A stretch of DNA of 48,242 nt, from positions 1-48,242 of the forward strand of contig VGWF01000016.1 in assembly GCA_016873715.1 (NCBI GenBank), read 5' to 3'. Below are positions 6,506 through 13,586 of this stretch, piece by piece. The notes beneath the pieces were generated by a model. That model ran no database searches. It was not told the origin of the DNA and saw nothing but the letters and a program-made list of their open reading frames with translations. The DNA is from Lentisphaerota bacterium (GTDB lineage: Bacteria > Verrucomicrobiota > Kiritimatiellia > PWTM01). Position numbers and translations under genes: made by a program. Position 1 is the stretch's first letter. Each line of letters opens with the position of its first letter.

Positions 6506-7221
6506 GCGGGCAGCGCCCCGAACCGCCGCAGGGCCTCCTCGGCCTCGCGGATGTTCTTCATGTCGTTGACCGACACCCATTCCTCGCCGCCGGAGAGCAT
6601 GTAGCCGGCCAGCTTCCCATCCGCCGCAAGGCGCGTGAAGACGGCATCCTCGATCGACCCGGTCTGCGGCAGCAGCGGACGGATCGCGCGGTTGAACAGG
6701 TAGACCCCGATGCTGACCGGAACCTGCGGCAGCTGGCGGCCGTACTTGAAGCCGGAGATGCGGCCGTCCGGCTCGTGATCGACCACGCTGAACCGGCAGA
6801 AGAACGGCGCGAGGGCCATTGTCACGACGGACCCGCACCGGCGGTGCACCGCCTCGAGGTTCGGCAGCGAGAGGTTCGTGATCTCGTCGCAGTTCATCGC
6901 GAGGAAGTCCTCCTCGTCCGCCGGAACGTGCCGCTCGATGGCCAGGCGGAAACCCTGCGCCGTGCCGCCGTCGAGCGTGTGCTCGCTGATGCGCACGTCC
7001 ATGCCCAGGCCGCCGCCGGCGGCGATGTGGTTCACGATCACGTCGCCGCGGTAGGCGACGCCGATGACCACGCGCCGGATGCCCTGCGACTGGAGCCAGC
7101 GGAGCACCCAGTGCAGGAGCGGCTGGCCGCCCGCCGGCACCATGCCCTTGGGCCGGTCGTCCGTCAGCGGCTTCAGCCGCTCGCCCCGCCCGCCCGCGAT
7201 CACCACCGCCGTGCGAATCAT
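6502..7221 (-). CDS. Sugar-1-phosphate nucleotidyltransferase
   Basis: This 239-aa GT-A-like pyrophosphorylase begins TAVVIAGGRGERLKPLTDDRPKG, the classic G-x-G-x-R...K signature that binds the NTP, followed by the LHWVLRWLQSQGI helix. FLAMNCDEI carries the metal-binding Asp, and GVYLFN and SVNDMKNIREAE match the core of the family. It is short, without the left-handed beta-helix domain of bifunctional enzymes. It is the last gene of the long minus-strand operon and overlaps the preceding methyltransferase stop by 4 nt. It activates a sugar phosphate, but whether with GTP, CTP, UTP or dTTP cannot be decided. It is a second nucleotidyltransferase besides the HddC-like one at 10492. Confidence 0.9.
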   Translation of the reverse strand: MIRTAVVIAGGRGERLKPLTDDRPKGMVPAGGQPLLHWVLRWLQSQGIRRVVIGVAYRGDVIVNHIAAGGGLGMDVRISEHTLDGGTAQGFRLAIERHVPADEEDFLAMNCDEITNLSLPNLEAVHRRCGSVVTMALAPFFCRFSVVDHEPDGRISGFKYGRQLPQVPVSIGVYLFNRAIRPLLPQTGSIEDAVFTRLAADGKLAGYMLSGGEEWVSVNDMKNIREAEEALRRFGALPA

Positions 7222-7961
7222 GCCCCCACCCCCCGCCCGGCTTCGGGCGCGCGAACGCGGCCGACGACGAGCGCGTTCGCGCAACCGTAGGGCGTTCCGA
7301 ACTTCGCGCCCCGGACCTCCGGCCACGTCGCCTCGACCCACCGGTTGTCCGTCGAGATCCGCCGGAGGAAGCGGCGCTCCGTGAACGGCAGCGCGTCGGC
7401 CTCCAGCAGCCGGTCGAGATTCCCGTTGTAGCCCAGCGGCATCGTGACGAGCAGTTCGCCGCCCGGGGCCAGCATCCGCGACATCGCGCCGAGAGCCACG
7501 CCGAGCTTGGCGTCGTCCCGCGGCGTCTCGTCCCACCCCACGTGCTCCAGCGTCGAGAGGCACAGGATCAGGTCGAAGGGGCGCTCCGGCCGGTAGTCGA
7601 CGATGTCCGCGTTGATCACGCCCGTCGCCTTCTCGTACTTGTCGACGACCGTGTGCTCGAAGCGCCGGTAGGCCGCCAGCACGTTGCCGACCTCGAGGAT
7701 CCTCGCGCCCGGCCGCCGCTCGACGAGCCGCAGCGCCAGCGGGATCTCCACCGTGCGCTCGTTGTCGAGGATGAACGGGTGGATCAGGTGCGTGAACCGC
7801 TCGCCCCCGAGATCGAACGGCCGAGCGCCGCCGAGCTTGCGGCCGGCATACTTCAGGCCGCGGTCGATCACCACGCCCGCGGCGCGCAGAGGGTTGTTCC
7901 CCGGCTCCGCAAGCCAGCGCCGCATCTGCTCGATCGAACCGGACAGGGTCGACTGGCTCAT
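7218..7961 (-). CDS. Class I SAM-dependent methyltransferase-like protein
   Basis: In this 247-aa protein the region ARILEVGNVLAAY is a divergent SAM motif I (E-x-G-N instead of D-x-G-x-G). PFDLILCLSTLEHVGWDE is the usual post-motif region, with the LEHVGW signature seen in sugar-modifying methyltransferases, and MLAPGGELLVTMPLGYN follows. The conserved RFTHLIHPFILDNERTVEIPLALRL segment before motif I is common in polysaccharide-locus methyltransferases. The ATG at 7961 overlaps the stop of the gmhB gene (ATGA), so translation is coupled. The substrate is probably a sugar of the polysaccharide made here; this is inferred from context only. Confidence 0.8.
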   Translation of the reverse strand: MSQSTLSGSIEQMRRWLAEPGNNPLRAAGVVIDRGLKYAGRKLGGARPFDLGGERFTHLIHPFILDNERTVEIPLALRLVERRPGARILEVGNVLAAYRRFEHTVVDKYEKATGVINADIVDYRPERPFDLILCLSTLEHVGWDETPRDDAKLGVALGAMSRMLAPGGELLVTMPLGYNGNLDRLLEADALPFTERRFLRRISTDNRWVEATWPEVRGAKFGTPYGCANALVVGRVRAPEAGRGVGA

Positions 7962-8914
7962 GCGCGCGGCTCCGTCGGGACGATGATGGACAAGGCCCCG
8001 GCCAGGTTGCGGGCGACGTGATCCGGCTCGCCGTGCTCGAAGGCGAGGAACCGCTCGATCTGTTCGATCTTGAGGTTCGCCACGAGGATCGTCCGGCACC
8101 CGGCGGCGCGGCCCGCGCCGATGTCGACCAGGCCGTCGCCGACCATCCAGCTCCGGGCGAGGTCGAGGCCATGCTCCCGCGCGGCCTGGAGCAGCAGGCC
8201 GGGCTTCGGCTTGCGGCAGTCGCACGCGGAGACGCCGGGATGATGCGGACAGACGTAAACCGCATCCCACGCCGCCCCGCCGGCCGCCAGCAGCTCCGCG
8301 AGCCGGCCGTGGACGGCGTCGAGGTCCGCCTGCGTCAGCGTCCCCTTGGCGAACCCGGGCTGGTTGGTGACGAGGATGGCGCGGAAGCCGGCGGCCTTCA
8401 CGCCGCGAACGAACTCCGCCGCGCCGGGACGCAGGCGGACCTGCTCCGCGCGACGGGGCGAATCGAACGTCCCATGGGTCCCGTCGTACACCATGTCGTT
8501 CATCGTCCCGTCGCGATCGATGAAAACGGCCGGGACCAGCCCTGTCTCACGCACCATCGGCGGGCCGGAGACATCCGTTTCACGGCGCAGACGCAGGATC
8601 TCGCGATGGAAGCCGGGAAGCACACGGGCAACAACGTCCCAGACAAGATCGAGGTCCACGCCGAAATCTCCGGGGATCACCCGGTTCCTCAGTCCCACGA
8701 TGCGATGCCATTCGATCCCGGCATGGAGCGCACGAAAGGACGGCGGAAGACGCGAAACGGCCTCGCCGATGGTTTCCAGGTTTCGCAGGGTCGCGTCGGC
8801 GGCCATCGAGGTCCGCGGGAATGACTCCGCGGTCAACCCGAGCGTGTACTCCTCGATCCGCGCGAGGGCGTCGAGGATATCGTCCAGGAGAAGCACTATG
8901 GGCCGGCTAGACAT
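7958..8914 (-). CDS. gmhB: HepT-like domain fused in frame to D,D-heptose bisphosphate phosphatase (GmhB)
   Basis: One open frame of 318 codons encodes two unrelated proteins. Residues 1-112 are a HepT/DUF86 toxin domain (ILDALARIEEYT, NLETIGEAVSRLP, WHRIVGLRN, DLDLVWDVV). From about residue 120 a complete GmhB-type HAD phosphatase follows: catalytic FIDRDGT (Asp133, Asp135), LVTNQPGFAKG, the zinc loop CPHHPGVSACDC (Cys222, His224, Cys231, Cys233) and MVGDGLVDI. No stop codon separates them. The Met at residue 120 (codon 8557-8555) has no clear ribosome site. In HepT the toxin motif should read R-x4-H-x-Y; here it reads RNRVIPGDF, so His is Pro81 and Tyr is Asp83. The toxin half is therefore probably inactive as an RNase. 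GmhB removes the 7-phosphate in heptose activation. It starts 8 nt inside the mntA gene. Confidence 0.9.
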   Translation of the reverse strand: MSSRPIVLLLDDILDALARIEEYTLGLTAESFPRTSMAADATLRNLETIGEAVSRLPPSFRALHAGIEWHRIVGLRNRVIPGDFGVDLDLVWDVVARVLPGFHREILRLRRETDVSGPPMVRETGLVPAVFIDRDGTMNDMVYDGTHGTFDSPRRAEQVRLRPGAAEFVRGVKAAGFRAILVTNQPGFAKGTLTQADLDAVHGRLAELLAAGGAAWDAVYVCPHHPGVSACDCRKPKPGLLLQAAREHGLDLARSWMVGDGLVDIGAGRAAGCRTILVANLKIEQIERFLAFEHGEPDHVARNLAGALSIIVPTEPRA

Positions 8915-9197
8915 AGACCAGGTCCGCCTCAATCGCCTTTCGGTGCCGCGGGGCCAGCGCACGAGTCGATACGAGATCGACATGCAGCCCCAGTCGCTGC
9001 TCCATGACCTCCGCCAGATCGACAAACTCAAGCCCCACCCGGGGATCGATGTCGATCAGTACGTCCACGTCGCTCGTCGCGCGGGCATCGCCCCGGGCAC
9101 GAGAGCCGAACAGCGCCAGACTCCGGATGCCGTATCGCGCCGACACCTCCGCCTTGATGGCGGCCAGTGCGGCCAGGATCTGTTCCCGTGAGATCAT
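8907..9197 (-). CDS. mntA: MntA-type antitoxin nucleotidyltransferase
   Basis: This 96-aa minimal nucleotidyltransferase has the motif GSRARGDARATSDVDV (residues 31-46), a perfect GS-x10-DxD, and a third acidic residue in LHVDLVS. Family knowledge: MntA antitoxins inactivate HepT by AMPylating a tyrosine near its RNase motif. The gene overlaps the HepT-coding start by 8 nt and begins 4 nt after the DUF4143 ATPase stop, so the three are one transcription unit. The antitoxin looks intact although the target tyrosine in the adjacent HepT is missing. It may be a relic or may have another partner. Confidence 0.9.
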   Translation of the reverse strand: MISREQILAALAAIKAEVSARYGIRSLALFGSRARGDARATSDVDVLIDIDPRVGLEFVDLAEVMEQRLGLHVDLVSTRALAPRHRKAIEADLVYV

Positions 9198-9201
9198 GTC
9201 G

Positions 9202-10431
9202 TCAACCTATCAGGTCCCCGCCGGGAGATCGAGACGAGGCACGGCCAACCCCTGTCCGGCCGGGGATCGACTCCTGCGGGGCTTCACCGCGCGGGTTCCC
9301 GAACATGCCTCGCAGGTCCTCGACCCGGGCAAACCAGACCTCGAGCCCCGCCCGGTGCCGGCGATAGGCGGGCTGGGACTGCGGCGAAACCACCAGATTG
9401 CGTCCCTTGGGATGCAGGCGACGGAACTCGGCCAGGTTGCGTGGCTCCCATGCATCCGCATTCCACTTCACCTCGATGGCATCCTGGGCGCCATCGCCGC
9501 GGGGTGCGACAAAGTCCACCTCGCGTCCCTGCTTGTCCCGCCAGTAGTACAGCCGGGGGTGGACCTCGAGCGTCAGCAGCGTTTCGAGGACCAGGTGCTC
9601 GAAGAGCGCCCCGCAATCCTCGGGACGAAGGTCCGACCAGCCTCGTGCGAAGGCTGCGAATCCGGTGTCGAACGCATACACCTTCGGCCGGCGCACGAGT
9701 TCCTGTCCGCCCGAGCCGTGAAACGGACGGAGAACGTGGATCAGATGCGTGATCTGCATGGCATCCAGGTAGGTCATGACGGTCGGTCGTGAGATCCCGA
9801 TGTCACGGGACAACGACGCGACCTCCATCAGCCCTCCGCTCTGCCGGAACAGGGCTTCGGCCAAGTGCAGGAAGCCGGCCCGCTTGTCGATATTGAACAG
9901 TTCCGCGACGTCGCGTGCAAAGTATGAATCCATCCACTCGGCATAGTATCCCGGGTCACGCTCCCGCCCGAGCAGGGGCTCCGGGAGCCCGCCGCGCAAA
10001 AGGCGAACGCGCAGATCGGCGCATCCGAAACGGTCCAGTTCCTCGGCCAGGACGGGCATCAGCGTCAGCATCCGCTTTCGCCCGGTCAGCGAATCCCGGA
10101 ACTTCCGCGTCGCCTCCAGGGTCGAGGATCCCGTGGCGAGGATCCTGACCCGCGGCCTGTGGTCGGCTCCGATCTTGAGGAGCCGGCTCGGGTCCCGCAA
10201 CTGATGCACCTCATCCAGCACCACGATCCGCCCGGCGGCGTCCCGGTAGAAGGCCTCCGGGTCGCCCAGCAGCGTCTGCACGGAAGGCAGATCGCAGTTC
10301 AGGTAGAGCGCTTCGCGCAGGGACCGCGCAAGCGTGGTCTTGCCGGAGCGGCGCACACCGGAAAGCCACACGATGGGCGCCTTCTCCCAGAGCGCCGCCA
10401 TCCGCGCCATCCAGTACGGTCTCTCGATCAT
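9202..10431 (-). CDS. AAA+ ATPase with DUF4143 domain
   Basis: This 409-aa protein has a P-loop GVRRSGKTT at residues 25-33, Walker B VVLDE at 70-74, and the sensor-like LATGSS. A winged-helix segment (LSRDIGISRPTVMTYLDAM) follows. The C-terminal DUF4143 domain contains REVDFVAP and AIEVKW, matching a PD-(D/E)xK nuclease-like core. Such proteins are common accessory genes, often beside toxin-antitoxin pairs; their cellular role is unsettled. Here it heads the ATPase-mntA-hepT unit. Its 60-nt upstream gap holds three copies of an operator-like half-site, suggesting autoregulation. The last 25 residues are Gly/Arg/Ser-rich and may be non-essential. Confidence 0.9.
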   Translation of the reverse strand: MIERPYWMARMAALWEKAPIVWLSGVRRSGKTTLARSLREALYLNCDLPSVQTLLGDPEAFYRDAAGRIVVLDEVHQLRDPSRLLKIGADHRPRVRILATGSSTLEATRKFRDSLTGRKRMLTLMPVLAEELDRFGCADLRVRLLRGGLPEPLLGRERDPGYYAEWMDSYFARDVAELFNIDKRAGFLHLAEALFRQSGGLMEVASLSRDIGISRPTVMTYLDAMQITHLIHVLRPFHGSGGQELVRRPKVYAFDTGFAAFARGWSDLRPEDCGALFEHLVLETLLTLEVHPRLYYWRDKQGREVDFVAPRGDGAQDAIEVKWNADAWEPRNLAEFRRLHPKGRNLVVSPQSQPAYRRHRAGLEVWFARVEDLRGMFGNPRGEAPQESIPGRTGVGRASSRSPGGDLIG

Positions 10432-10439
10432 CGCTGCGT

Positions 10440-10483
10440 TTTACACTTGGAGGATCCAAATGTAAATAGCACTTTACATTTGG
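10440..10483. promoter_or_regulatory. Three-half-site operator-like palindrome upstream of the DUF4143 ATPase
   Basis: Half-sites TTTACACTTGG (10440-10450), CCAAATGTAAA (10456-10466) and TTTACATTTGG (10473-10483) alternate in orientation. The second and third form a perfect 11-bp inverted repeat with a 6-nt spacer. The first and second form one with a single mismatch and a 5-nt spacer. The site lies directly before the ATPase start at 10431 and is much richer in AT than its surroundings. It probably holds the promoter and an operator of the accessory module. Confidence 0.75.
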
Positions 10484-10491
10484 AAACACCC

Positions 10492-11190
10492 TCAGTTCGG
10501 CCGAAGCAGGGCATCCAGCTCGGCCAGGCCCTCGGGCTTGCCGATTTCGTAGAAGCGGTCGGGGGTTTCGTAGGCGGCGACGCGACCGGCCGGGACGAGG
10601 TCGCCGAGGATCGCCGCCATGTCGAGAGGCATCGGCGCGGAGCGGCGCTCCTCGATGATGCGCCGGCGGAACGCGGTCAGGCCGTAGTCGATCCACGCGG
10701 CCTCGCCGGGGCGCGACTTCTTCGAGTAGAAAACCACCCGCCCGTCTTCGACGCGCGTGTTGCTGGCGTCCCAGCGGCCTTCGTTGCGGTAGACCGTCAT
10801 CAACGCGGGACATCCGGACGCCTCGAAGGCCGCCGCGACGGCGCGATAGTCGACGGTCAGGTACGAATCGCCGTACATGACGAGGAAGGACTCGGCAAGA
10901 TGAGGCAGCGCGTTCACCAGGGCGCCGCCGGTGCCGAGCAGCCGGTCCGGCGACTCGCGCGAGTAGGCCACCCGCACGCCCCACCTCGCCCCGTCGCCGA
11001 CGTGGGCCTCGATCCGGTCGCCGCCGATGCCGACGAGCAGGAGGACCTCGCGCAGGCCGCAGGCCGCAAGCCGGTCGAACTGATGTTCGATGAACGGACG
11101 TCCGGCCACCGGGATCAGCGCCTTCGGCAGGCCCCGGGCGACGGCGGCGATCCGGGTGCCCATGCCGCCGCAGAGGATCACCGTCTGCAC
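10492..11190 (-). CDS. hddC: HddC-like D-glycero-D-manno-heptose 1-phosphate nucleotidyltransferase
   Basis: This protein of about 232 aa starts VQTVILCGGMGTR, with the NTP-binding G-x-G-x-R and later LPKALIPVAGRPFIEHQ. LGTGGAL and FLVMYGDSYL (metal-binding Asp) complete the pyrophosphorylase core. The GTG at 11190 is chosen because GGAGG lies about 4 nt upstream and it begins at the fold; an upstream ATG at 11229 adds a Thr/Pro tail. It starts 1 nt after the kinase stop. Together with the kinase, isomerase and phosphatase it fits HddC, which makes GDP-D-glycero-alpha-D-manno-heptose. The nucleotide (GDP or ADP) is inferred from the kinase type, not seen in sequence. Confidence 0.85.
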   Translation of the reverse strand: MQTVILCGGMGTRIAAVARGLPKALIPVAGRPFIEHQFDRLAACGLREVLLLVGIGGDRIEAHVGDGARWGVRVAYSRESPDRLLGTGGALVNALPHLAESFLVMYGDSYLTVDYRAVAAAFEASGCPALMTVYRNEGRWDASNTRVEDGRVVFYSKKSRPGEAAWIDYGLTAFRRRIIEERRSAPMPLDMAAILGDLVPAGRVAAYETPDRFYEIGKPEGLAELDALLRPN

Positions 11191-11191
11191 A

Positions 11192-12229
11192 TCACCTCCG
11201 CTGGGCGTCGTAGTCGTCGGAGTCGGCAAGATCGGCGACGATGCGCGAACCGTGCATGCAGGGGAACCACGCGACGCGCGGCATGCCCTGGGCGGCCATG
11301 AACTCGTCGAGGGCGCGGCCCTTCTCCGGGCAGTAGAGCAACACGAACCCGCCGCCGCCGGCGCCGATGATCTTCCCGCCGAGGACGCCGAAATCGCGCT
11401 TCACGGCGTCGTAGAGGCCGTCGATCGAGGAGAGGCTCACCGAGGCCGACAACTGCCGCTTGGACTGCCAGTGTTCGTCCATCAGGCGCGCGAAGGCATC
11501 CATGTCGCGATCGAGGAAGGCCTGCCGGATCCGGCGGCCGATCTCCTTGATCTTCAGGAGCGAATCCACCACGCGGGCGTGGTCGGGGCGGTCGGCGCGG
11601 CGGCTGGCTTCGTCCTGGTTCTTCAGCACGGCCGTCGCGGACCGCTGGATGCCGGTGTAGTACATGCGCGCCTTGTGGGCGAGTTCCATGGCGGAGGTCG
11701 AATCGACCGCGACCGTGCCGACCGTGACCGCGCCGTCCTTCGCGATCTCCAGCGTGCGGAAGCCGCCGAAGGCCGCGATGTACTGGTCCTGCTTGCCGAC
11801 GGGCTCCCGGAGGATGTCCATCTCGATGCGGCAGGCGTCGTCCGCGACCTGCGCCAGCGGGGCCGGATTCCGCTGGTAGGCGCGGATCGCGGTCAGGAGG
11901 CCGACGAGGTAGGCGCCGGAGGACCCGAGACCCGTTCGCGCCGGAAGGTCGGCCATGCTGGTCAGTTCGACGTAGTCCGTCAGGTTCATCATCCGGAAGG
12001 CCTCCCGCGCGAGCGGGTGGCGGATCTCGTCGATCGTGCTCACGGTCTCGACCTGCGTGTAGCGGAGGATCGACTTGCGCTCCGTCACCGGGAGGCGGTG
12101 AAGCATCACGTACATGAACTTGTCGATGGCCATCGTGAACACGAAGCCGCCGTGCTCGCGGTAGAACGACGGAAGATCGGTCCCGCCGCCGCCGAGGGTG
12201 ATGCGGAAAGGGGTTTGGGAGATGATCAT
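11192..12229 (-). CDS. hddA: GHMP kinase, D-glycero-alpha-D-manno-heptose-7-phosphate kinase (HddA-like)
   Basis: This 345-aa GHMP kinase has the N-terminal PFRITLGGGGTDLP (residues 7-20), the ATP-binding motif 2 PARTGLGSSGAYL at 96-108, and motif 3 KIIGAGGGGFVLLY near the C-terminus. The G-G-G-G-T-D-L-P start is typical of heptose and fucose kinases of the HddA/FKP group. HddA phosphorylates the C1 position of D-glycero-alpha-D-manno-heptose 7-phosphate, committing the sugar to GDP-heptose. Its ATG overlaps the transaldolase stop (ATGA at 12226-12229), and its end abuts the HddC-like gene. The operon context (GmhA, GmhB, HddC) supports the assignment. Confidence 0.88.
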   Translation of the reverse strand: MIISQTPFRITLGGGGTDLPSFYREHGGFVFTMAIDKFMYVMLHRLPVTERKSILRYTQVETVSTIDEIRHPLAREAFRMMNLTDYVELTSMADLPARTGLGSSGAYLVGLLTAIRAYQRNPAPLAQVADDACRIEMDILREPVGKQDQYIAAFGGFRTLEIAKDGAVTVGTVAVDSTSAMELAHKARMYYTGIQRSATAVLKNQDEASRRADRPDHARVVDSLLKIKEIGRRIRQAFLDRDMDAFARLMDEHWQSKRQLSASVSLSSIDGLYDAVKRDFGVLGGKIIGAGGGGFVLLYCPEKGRALDEFMAAQGMPRVAWFPCMHGSRIVADLADSDDYDAQRR

Positions 12230-12948
12230 ATGCTGAACCCGCTCTTTTGCGCGTCGTTGTAGAACATCTTCACGGTGTCGAGGGAGAACGCGTCGAGGTC
12301 CTTGCCGAAGTTCGCGGCCTTCGCGAGGAGGTCGGGCGTGACGGTGATGATCGGGCAGCCCATCCACTCGGCCTGCAGGATGTTCAGCGCCTCGCGCGGG
12401 CTGGCCCACAGCAGTTCCGCCCGCGGCTTCGGGCGCAGGACCTCCAGCGCCTCCTTCATCAGCGGGAGCGGGTCGCGGCCGGCGTCGGCGATGCGGCCGG
12501 CGAAGACGGAGATGAAGGCCGACGACCCCGGCGACAGCACGGACTCCACGTCGCGGACCTGCTGGAGGGTCATCATCGCCGTGATATTGAGCTTGGTCCC
12601 GCGGGCCGAGAGCTCGCCGATGAGCGGACAGGCGGACGCGCCCTTCGTATTCGTGATCGGGATTTTCACGTACACGTTCGGCGCCAGGCCGTCGAGCACC
12701 TCCGCCTGCTTCCGCATCTCGGCGAAGTCGTCCGAGAAGACCTCGAACGACACCGGCAGGTCGGTGACGATGCGCAGGACCTCGCGCGCGAACATCAGGT
12801 AGTTCGTCACGCCCGCCTTCGCCATCAGCGTCGGGTTCGTCGTGAAGCCCTTCACGAGTCCGCGCTGGCGCGCCTCGACGATCGAATCGAGGTCGGCGCC
12901 GTCGGAGAAGATCTTGATCTTCAGGTCCTGCAGACGGGGAACGTTCAT
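12226..12948 (-). CDS. Transaldolase family protein
   Basis: This TIM-barrel aldolase of about 240 aa resembles the short transaldolases and fructose-6-phosphate aldolases. Seen: KGFTTNPTLMAKAG, the Schiff-base lysine in NVYVKIPIT (Lys95), LNITAMMTLQQV, FISVFAGRIADAGRDP and ASPREALNILQAEWMGCPIITVTPDLL. The ATG at 12948 has CGGAG at a good distance; an ATG at 12972 overlapping the isomerase stop would add eight residues. Transaldolase activity would interconvert fructose 6-phosphate and sedoheptulose 7-phosphate, the substrate of the GmhA-like isomerase encoded just before it. Its place in the middle of a heptose operon suggests a dedicated precursor supply. Confidence 0.88.
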   Translation of the reverse strand: MNVPRLQDLKIKIFSDGADLDSIVEARQRGLVKGFTTNPTLMAKAGVTNYLMFAREVLRIVTDLPVSFEVFSDDFAEMRKQAEVLDGLAPNVYVKIPITNTKGASACPLIGELSARGTKLNITAMMTLQQVRDVESVLSPGSSAFISVFAGRIADAGRDPLPLMKEALEVLRPKPRAELLWASPREALNILQAEWMGCPIITVTPDLLAKAANFGKDLDAFSLDTVKMFYNDAQKSGFSI

Positions 12949-12968: not shown

Positions 12969-13586
12969 TCATGGGGCGGACGCCGGGGCGGTGCTCTCCC
13001 ACTTCGTCGGCGCGGCCTTCAGCAGCGGGTGCGAAACCAGCAGGTGCCAGACGACCGCCTGGAAGGCCTCGGTGTGCGGCGTCACGGCCGCGGGATTCAC
13101 GACCGGGATCACGACGCAGGCGTCGGCCGACCTCGCCGTGTAGCCGCCGTCGCGGCCGACGATGCCCGCCACCTTCGCCCCCACCCCTTTCGCGTAACGG
13201 ATCGCCTCGATCAGGTTCGGGCTGACGTTGTGCTCCGCGTCGCCGCCGCCGACCGAAAAGACCAGGACGCCGTCGCCCGACCGAAGACGGCTCGCCTGGA
13301 GCCATCCGACGAAGACCCCCGCCCAGCCCTCGTCGTTGATGCGGGCGGTCAGTTCCGAGACGTTGTCCGTCGGCGCGTAGGTCTCGATCGCGCAGAGCTT
13401 GCGGAAGTCGTTCACGGCGTGCGAGGCGTTCGCCGCGCTGCCGCCCACGCCGAGCAGGAAGAGGCGTCCGCCGGCCGCGCGCACGCCGGCCAGGAGCGAC
13501 GCGACCCGCGCGATGGCGTCGCGGTCGAGCCGCCGTACGACCTCCACGGTCTCGGCCAGGTGCTTCTCGATGAAATCGTCACTCAT
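12969..13586 (-). CDS. SIS-domain phosphoheptose isomerase (GmhA-like)
   Basis: This 205-aa single-SIS protein has the sugar-phosphate loop GVGGSAANASH at residues 46-56 and the second loop VFSVGGGDAEHNVSPNLIEAI. The metal/catalytic helix of Escherichia coli GmhA (HFAAE) corresponds to HAVND here, so Glu is replaced by Asp. The C-terminal TPHTEAFQAVVWHLL resembles the GmhA active-site helix. It should convert sedoheptulose 7-phosphate to D-glycero-D-manno-heptose 7-phosphate; the divergence leaves room for another ketose substrate. It overlaps the Gfo/Idh stop by 4 nt and precedes the transaldolase by 20 nt. Confidence 0.82.
   Translation of the reverse strand: MSDDFIEKHLAETVEVVRRLDRDAIARVASLLAGVRAAGGRLFLLGVGGSAANASHAVNDFRKLCAIETYAPTDNVSELTARINDEGWAGVFVGWLQASRLRSGDGVLVFSVGGGDAEHNVSPNLIEAIRYAKGVGAKVAGIVGRDGGYTARSADACVVIPVVNPAAVTPHTEAFQAVVWHLLVSHPLLKAAPTKWESTAPASAP

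What the first reader, a model, noticed from the sequence alone, without database searches (positions are those of the whole stretch)
7958..8914. HepT toxin domain fused in frame to GmhB, with the toxin active site lost
No stop codon separates the DUF86/HepT domain from the heptose phosphatase. The RNase motif R-x4-H-x-Y reads RNRVIPGDF: the catalytic His is Pro81 and the tyrosine modified by MntA is Asp83. Each change could arise from a single base change. The toxin was probably disarmed when it became tied to a needed enzyme, or the dimeric HepT fold now serves another function, such as a dimerisation or regulatory domain controlled by MntA.
Basis: partly seen in the sequence, partly recalled or inferred. 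Interest (0 to 1): 0.75.

Follow-up and report, generated by a model that had tools for sequence, protein, structure and literature searches.

The report
Dead toxin fused to sugar phosphatase
A foreign toxin-antitoxin gene pair landed inside a sugar-nucleotide operon, and the toxin, which has lost the two key residues of its active site, now reads straight into the neighbouring heptose phosphatase as one protein; it is most likely a harmless passenger left over from the insertion.

Summary
One minus-strand frame (8914-7958, 318 aa, no internal stop) joins a HepT-like domain (Pfam PF01934, 67 bits, aa 13-106) to an intact GmhB-type HAD phosphatase (aa 126-311). The HepT motif R-x4-H-x-Y reads R76-NRVI-P81-G-D83. 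Of 114 other HepT homologues that cover the motif, 112 have R, H and Y; the window is the only full-length one lacking both H and Y. Other strongly conserved HepT positions are kept, and the adjacent MntA has its full GSX10DXD motif.

The origin is clear. In a genome of the same family the heptose operon reads hddA-hddC-gmhB-methyltransferase-NTP transferase with nothing between hddC and gmhB. In the window an AAA/DUF4143 gene, mntA and hepT lie exactly there, with foreign codon usage. Met120 is at the ancestral gmhB start. No other HepT-GmhB fusion was found in the class and phylum genomes searched. Two relatives have hddC, whole or a fragment, fused to gmhB in the same way, so in-frame joining is recurrent and tolerated.

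Most likely: a recently acquired, inactivated HepT carried as an N-terminal passenger on a working GmhB. A regulatory role through MntA is possible but has no positive evidence.

The parts
7958..8914 (-). HepT-GmhB fusion gene, 318 aa plus stop
   Evidence: Open frame without stop; Pfam HepT-like plus HAD
8561..8914 (-). HepT-like part (aa 1-118); motif RNRVIPGD in place of R-x4-H-x-Y at aa 76-83
   Evidence: predicted fold pLDDT 90.5, best PDB match by fold 5YEP, S. oneidensis HepT
7958..8557 (-). GmhB part starting at Met120, the ancestral gmhB start position; catalytic and zinc-loop residues kept
   Evidence: Alignment with 19 relatives; NCBIfam HAD-IIIA/histidinol-phosphatase domain; 2GMW GmhB 4e-24
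8907..9197 (-). mntA, minimal nucleotidyltransferase, 96 aa, GSX10DXD intact; its stop overlaps the hepT start (ATGTCTAG)
9202..10431 (-). AAA ATPase with DUF4143, part of the foreign stretch
10456..10483 (.). Palindrome CCAAATGTAAA-N6-TTTACATTTGG in front of the AAA gene, probable operator of that gene
10492..11229 (-). hddC-like sugar-1-phosphate nucleotidyltransferase, right-hand native neighbour of the insertion
11192..12232 (-). hddA-like heptose 7-phosphate kinase (GHMP)
12969..13586 (-). gmhA-like sedoheptulose 7-phosphate isomerase (SIS)
7218..7961 (-). Methyltransferase downstream of gmhB, left-hand native neighbour

Best explanation
A stretch of foreign DNA carrying an AAA/DUF4143 gene and a class I mntA-hepT pair inserted between hddC and gmhB of a GDP-heptose type operon (shown). 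The hepT gene has no stop of its own and lies in frame with gmhB, so ribosomes starting at the hepT ATG, which overlaps the mntA stop, make one HepT-GmhB protein (frame shown, translation inferred). The HepT RNase is inactive because its catalytic His is Pro, and MntA cannot modify it because the acceptor Tyr is Asp (residues shown, loss of activity inferred). The GmhB half keeps its active site and works as heptose bisphosphatase on a flexible tether (inferred). HepT is a tolerated passenger; MntA is intact because the event is recent or because its translation feeds that of the fusion (inferred).
For: Same-family genome G007 has hddA-hddC-gmhB-MT-NTP without the three genes. AAA, MntA and HepT have GC3 0.75-0.81 and codon adaptation 0.46-0.52, against 0.87-0.98 and 0.65-0.88 for 16 host genes and 0.91 and 0.72 for the GmhB part. 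Met120 aligns at the same distance from the DRDG motif as the G007 start. Closest HepT homologues (44-48%) are separate genes with intact motifs and end near aa 109-117. H and Y lost together in no other full-length homologue. MntA keeps every position that is at least 95% conserved. GmhB invariant residues kept. Two domains with a low-confidence linker in the model. G040 and G047 carry whole or partial HddC joined in frame to GmhB, so such joins are tolerated.
Against: No sign of general decay in HepT: apart from His and Tyr only one of the 13 most conserved positions differs, and the fold is predicted with confidence, which would also fit a retained function. The codon-usage switch cannot be placed exactly at the junction; the supported interval is codons 125-175. 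The AAA and mntA-hepT genes are not neighbours in relatives, so one or two insertions are possible. No expression data.
Confidence: 0.68

Rival explanations
1. Domesticated module: the HepT half now works as a dimerisation or docking domain, and MntA binds it to control GmhB and so heptose supply.
For: MntA intact; HepT fold and most conserved positions kept; PDB entries show that HEPN variants altered at these same positions still form complexes with MNT (6M6W Y104A, 7AE2 H107A-Y109F; titles); mntA and the fusion overlap, so they are probably made together.
Against: No second HepT-GmhB fusion in the genomes searched; foreign codon usage argues for a recent arrival; no known role of HepT as a regulatory domain of metabolic enzymes; the acceptor Tyr is gone.
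Confidence: 0.12
2. Two proteins in practice: GmhB is made from the internal start Met120, and HepT-GmhB is a minor or unimportant product.
For: Met120 is at the ancestral start position.
Against: No Shine-Dalgarno-like stretch before Met120; the best match is three bases at an unsuitable distance, although several neighbouring genes also have weak ones. No stop lies between the domains, so any ribosome on hepT makes the fusion.
Confidence: 0.12
3. The HepT half is still an active RNase through a metal site in helix 2, as reported for the Legionella HEPN, and is no longer controllable by modification.
For: In Legionella R98A and H103A did not matter, Q44 and E47 did; the window keeps E47 and E51 in helix 2, E51 being 99% conserved.
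Against: The Legionella site could not be mapped onto this sequence; in Shewanella H102A abolished toxicity; an uncontrolled RNase fused to a metabolic enzyme would be costly.
Confidence: 0.05
4. A sequence or assembly error hides a stop codon or alters the motif codons.
For: The genome is a 289-contig draft; reads are not available.
Against: Both insertion flanks agree with the intact operon of G007; two independent errors at exactly the two catalytic codons plus a lost stop are improbable; the frame aligns with homologues up to about aa 107.
Confidence: 0.03

Closest known systems
Class I HepT/MntA (type VII) toxin-antitoxin module, S. oneidensis SO_3166/SO_3165
   Same: PF01934 next to PF01909, overlapping genes with antitoxin first, GSX10DXD in MntA, best fold match 5YEP
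   Different: RX4HXY reads RX4PXD; toxin gene has no stop and is fused to GmhB; scores 23 bits against the NCBIfam HepT cut-off of 60; MntA 96 aa against 139
GmhB, D,D-heptose 1,7-bisphosphate phosphatase (2GMW)
   Same: HAD-IIIA motifs and zinc loop kept; operon with gmhA-, hddA- and hddC-like genes
   Different: N-terminal 119-residue HepT extension; scores below the NCBIfam GmhB equivalog cut-offs, so exact substrate not tested
HddC-GmhB joined frames in G040 (L010) and G047 (L015/L092)
   Same: Upstream gene joined in frame to gmhB
   Different: The joined partner is the native upstream enzyme, whole or a fragment, not a foreign toxin
HEPN variants H107A-Y109F (7AE2) and Y104A (6M6W)
   Same: Laboratory replacements at the same His and Tyr positions
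   Different: Engineered, separate proteins, not fused

Membership tests
Class I HepT toxin | PF01934 domain above its cut-off | tested here: met
   67 bits, cut-off 23.5
Class I HepT toxin | RX4HXY motif | tested here: not met
   R76, P81, D83
Class I HepT toxin | Neighbouring MNT protein with GSX10DXD | tested here: met
   GSRARGDARATSDVD
Class I HepT toxin | HEPN helical-bundle fold | tested here: met
   pLDDT 90.5; best match 5YEP, probability 1.00, TM 0.67, E 0.017
Class I HepT toxin | RNase activity and growth inhibition | not testable with these tools
   Needs experiment
MntA antitoxin | NCBIfam equivalog cut-off | tested here: not met
   40.9 bits against 60, although the catalytic motif is complete
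MntA antitoxin | AMP transfer to HepT tyrosine | not testable with these tools
   The acceptor tyrosine is absent from the fusion
GmhB phosphatase | HAD-IIIA catalytic residues and Cys/His zinc loop | tested here: met
   DRDGTMN, TNQPG, CPHH...CDCRKPKPG, GDGLVD conserved with relatives
GmhB phosphatase | NCBIfam GmhB equivalog cut-offs | tested here: not met
   Best 125 bits against 178; histidinol-phosphatase domain TIGR01656 met, 134 against 84
GmhB phosphatase | Operon context of GDP-heptose synthesis | tested here: met
   gmhA-, hddA-, hddC-like neighbours, conserved in G007

The most novel reading that the evidence does not exclude
HepT has been turned into a regulatory or oligomerising domain of a heptose phosphatase, and MntA has been kept as its binding partner: a domesticated type VII toxin-antitoxin pair that controls surface-sugar synthesis.
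Probability: 0.1. Interest if true: 0.75.

Novelty: new variant of a known kind. Interest (0 to 1): 0.36.

Why it matters
It is a rare, readable case of a toxin-antitoxin pair caught after insertion into a metabolic operon: the toxin has lost exactly its catalytic and its modified residue, the antitoxin is intact, and the remains are physically joined to a host enzyme. It makes it testable whether MntA still binds an unmodifiable HepT and how toxin genes become harmless parts of host proteins.

Tried and rejected
Search for the same fusion: class (346 genomes, HepT query), phylum (388 genomes, fusion query) and relatives gave none; the search of named genomes with HepT gave 23 loci, whose HepT frames are all under 270 aa and none of which was seen joined to gmhB. 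Close HepT relatives were not found on viral contigs or phages; plasmid hits are below 60% identity. A conserved AAA-mntA-hepT cassette was considered and rejected: relatives of either part lack the other nearby. Placing the junction by codon usage failed for lack of resolution. A combined alignment of HepT and GmhB rows for the fusion model was misaligned, so the HepT domain was modelled with its own alignment and the fusion with GmhB rows only. The Legionella active site could not be mapped. Fold search among viral proteins gave nothing significant. No paper on DUF4143 with toxin-antitoxin systems was found. The species could not be named with the tools used.

Full report
What is there. The minus strand from 8914 to 7958 is one open frame of 318 residues. 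Residues 13-106 match PF01934 (HepT-like, 67 bits) and residues from about 126 on match HAD-IIIA phosphatases of the GmhB/histidinol-phosphatase type. The HepT start overlaps the stop of a minimal nucleotidyltransferase gene, mntA (8907-9197), as ATGTCTAG. Upstream lies an AAA/DUF4143 gene (9202-10431).

The motif. R-x4-H-x-Y reads RNRVIPGD: R76, P81, D83. I collected HepT homologues from the class and from named genomes. Of 117 rows besides the window, 114 cover the motif: 112 have R, H and Y, one (L055, Acetomicrobium) has Ser for Arg, one (L125, a short frame) is altered at both H and Y (aligned as R, Y, S), and three are truncated. L125 is a broken copy, so among full-length frames the window is alone in lacking both; these counts are not corrected for relatedness. 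In the window the other positions at least 94% conserved (G50, E51, A52, R76, W92) are kept; among the 13 columns above 70% only positions 65, 81 and 83 differ. MntA keeps GSX10DXD and every column that is at least 95% conserved.

Where it came from. In G007, of the same family, the order hddA-hddC-gmhB-methyltransferase-NTP transferase is undisturbed; in the window the AAA, mntA and hepT genes sit between hddC and gmhB. These three have GC3 of 0.75-0.81 and low codon adaptation (0.46-0.52), against 0.87-0.98 and 0.65-0.88 for host genes; the GmhB part is host-like (0.91, 0.72). The likelihood switch from foreign to host codon usage is only located to about codons 125-175. The AAA gene and the mntA-hepT pair are not neighbours in relatives, so one or two insertions are possible. 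Met120 has the same spacing to the DRDG motif as the G007 start, so it is the old gmhB start.

How unusual the join is. The closest HepT relatives (L025, L026, L027, 44-48% identity) are separate genes with intact motif, overlapping MntA at their start and ending near residue 109-117. No other HepT-GmhB frame was found among 346 class genomes or 388 phylum genomes. But in G040 the whole hddC runs in frame into gmhB, and in G047 a 30-residue N-terminal piece of HddC does. In-frame extension of GmhB at its N-terminus is thus recurrent and evidently tolerated; the window is the case in which the upstream gene happened to be a foreign hepT.

How it probably works. The GmhB half keeps the residues invariant among 19 relatives and should be active. 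In S. oneidensis HepT, R97G or H102A abolished toxicity while Y104A did not (PMC4621449); Y104 is the site that MntA poly-adenylylates (PMC7641770). By that model P81 kills the RNase and D83 removes the site of control. The caveat is the Legionella HEPN, where the R and H of the motif were dispensable and a metal site in helix 2 was used (PMC11586414); I could not map that site here. The HepT half is predicted to fold well (pLDDT 90.5), its best match in the PDB is S. oneidensis HepT (E 0.017, probability 1.00), and in the fusion model a low-confidence linker around 115-123 joins two domains (the HepT half had no alignment there). Complexes of HEPN variants altered at the same positions with MNT are in the PDB (6M6W, 7AE2; titles), so MntA may still bind.

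Verdict. Best reading: a recently acquired toxin, disarmed, carried as a passenger on a working phosphatase. Whether disarming came before or after the fusion cannot be told. A second GmhB-like gene in the genome (C67, 46%) weakens the argument that the enzyme was indispensable.

Noticed in passing
window 10456-10483; L079, L082, L083, L085 upstream of the AAA gene: DUF4143 AAA genes of this subfamily have similar TTTACATTTGG...CCAAATGTAAA-like elements just upstream, with promoter-like spacing; probably an operator for self-regulation. The perfect palindrome occurs once in the genome.
   Followed up: partly
L010 (G040:C20): Whole hddC joined in frame to gmhB, a likely bifunctional heptose enzyme.
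   Followed up: partly
L092 1540-2251 (G047:C540): gmhB carries about 30 N-terminal residues of HddC, with the rest of hddC missing there and a DUF4143 gene just upstream.
   Followed up: partly
L054, L055, L057: Three Acetomicrobium HepT copies: one intact, one with Arg to Ser in the motif, one truncated by a stop, an example of toxin decay within a genus.
   Followed up: no
L001 (G000:C31) and L002 (G000:C43): Two other HepT genes in the same genome, of the Shewanella-like subfamily, with intact RX4HXY and GSX10DXD proteins nearby.
   Followed up: partly
window 8907-9197 and 9202-10431: MntA and the AAA protein match PADLOC candidate defence families PDC-S09 and PDC-S01.
   Followed up: no
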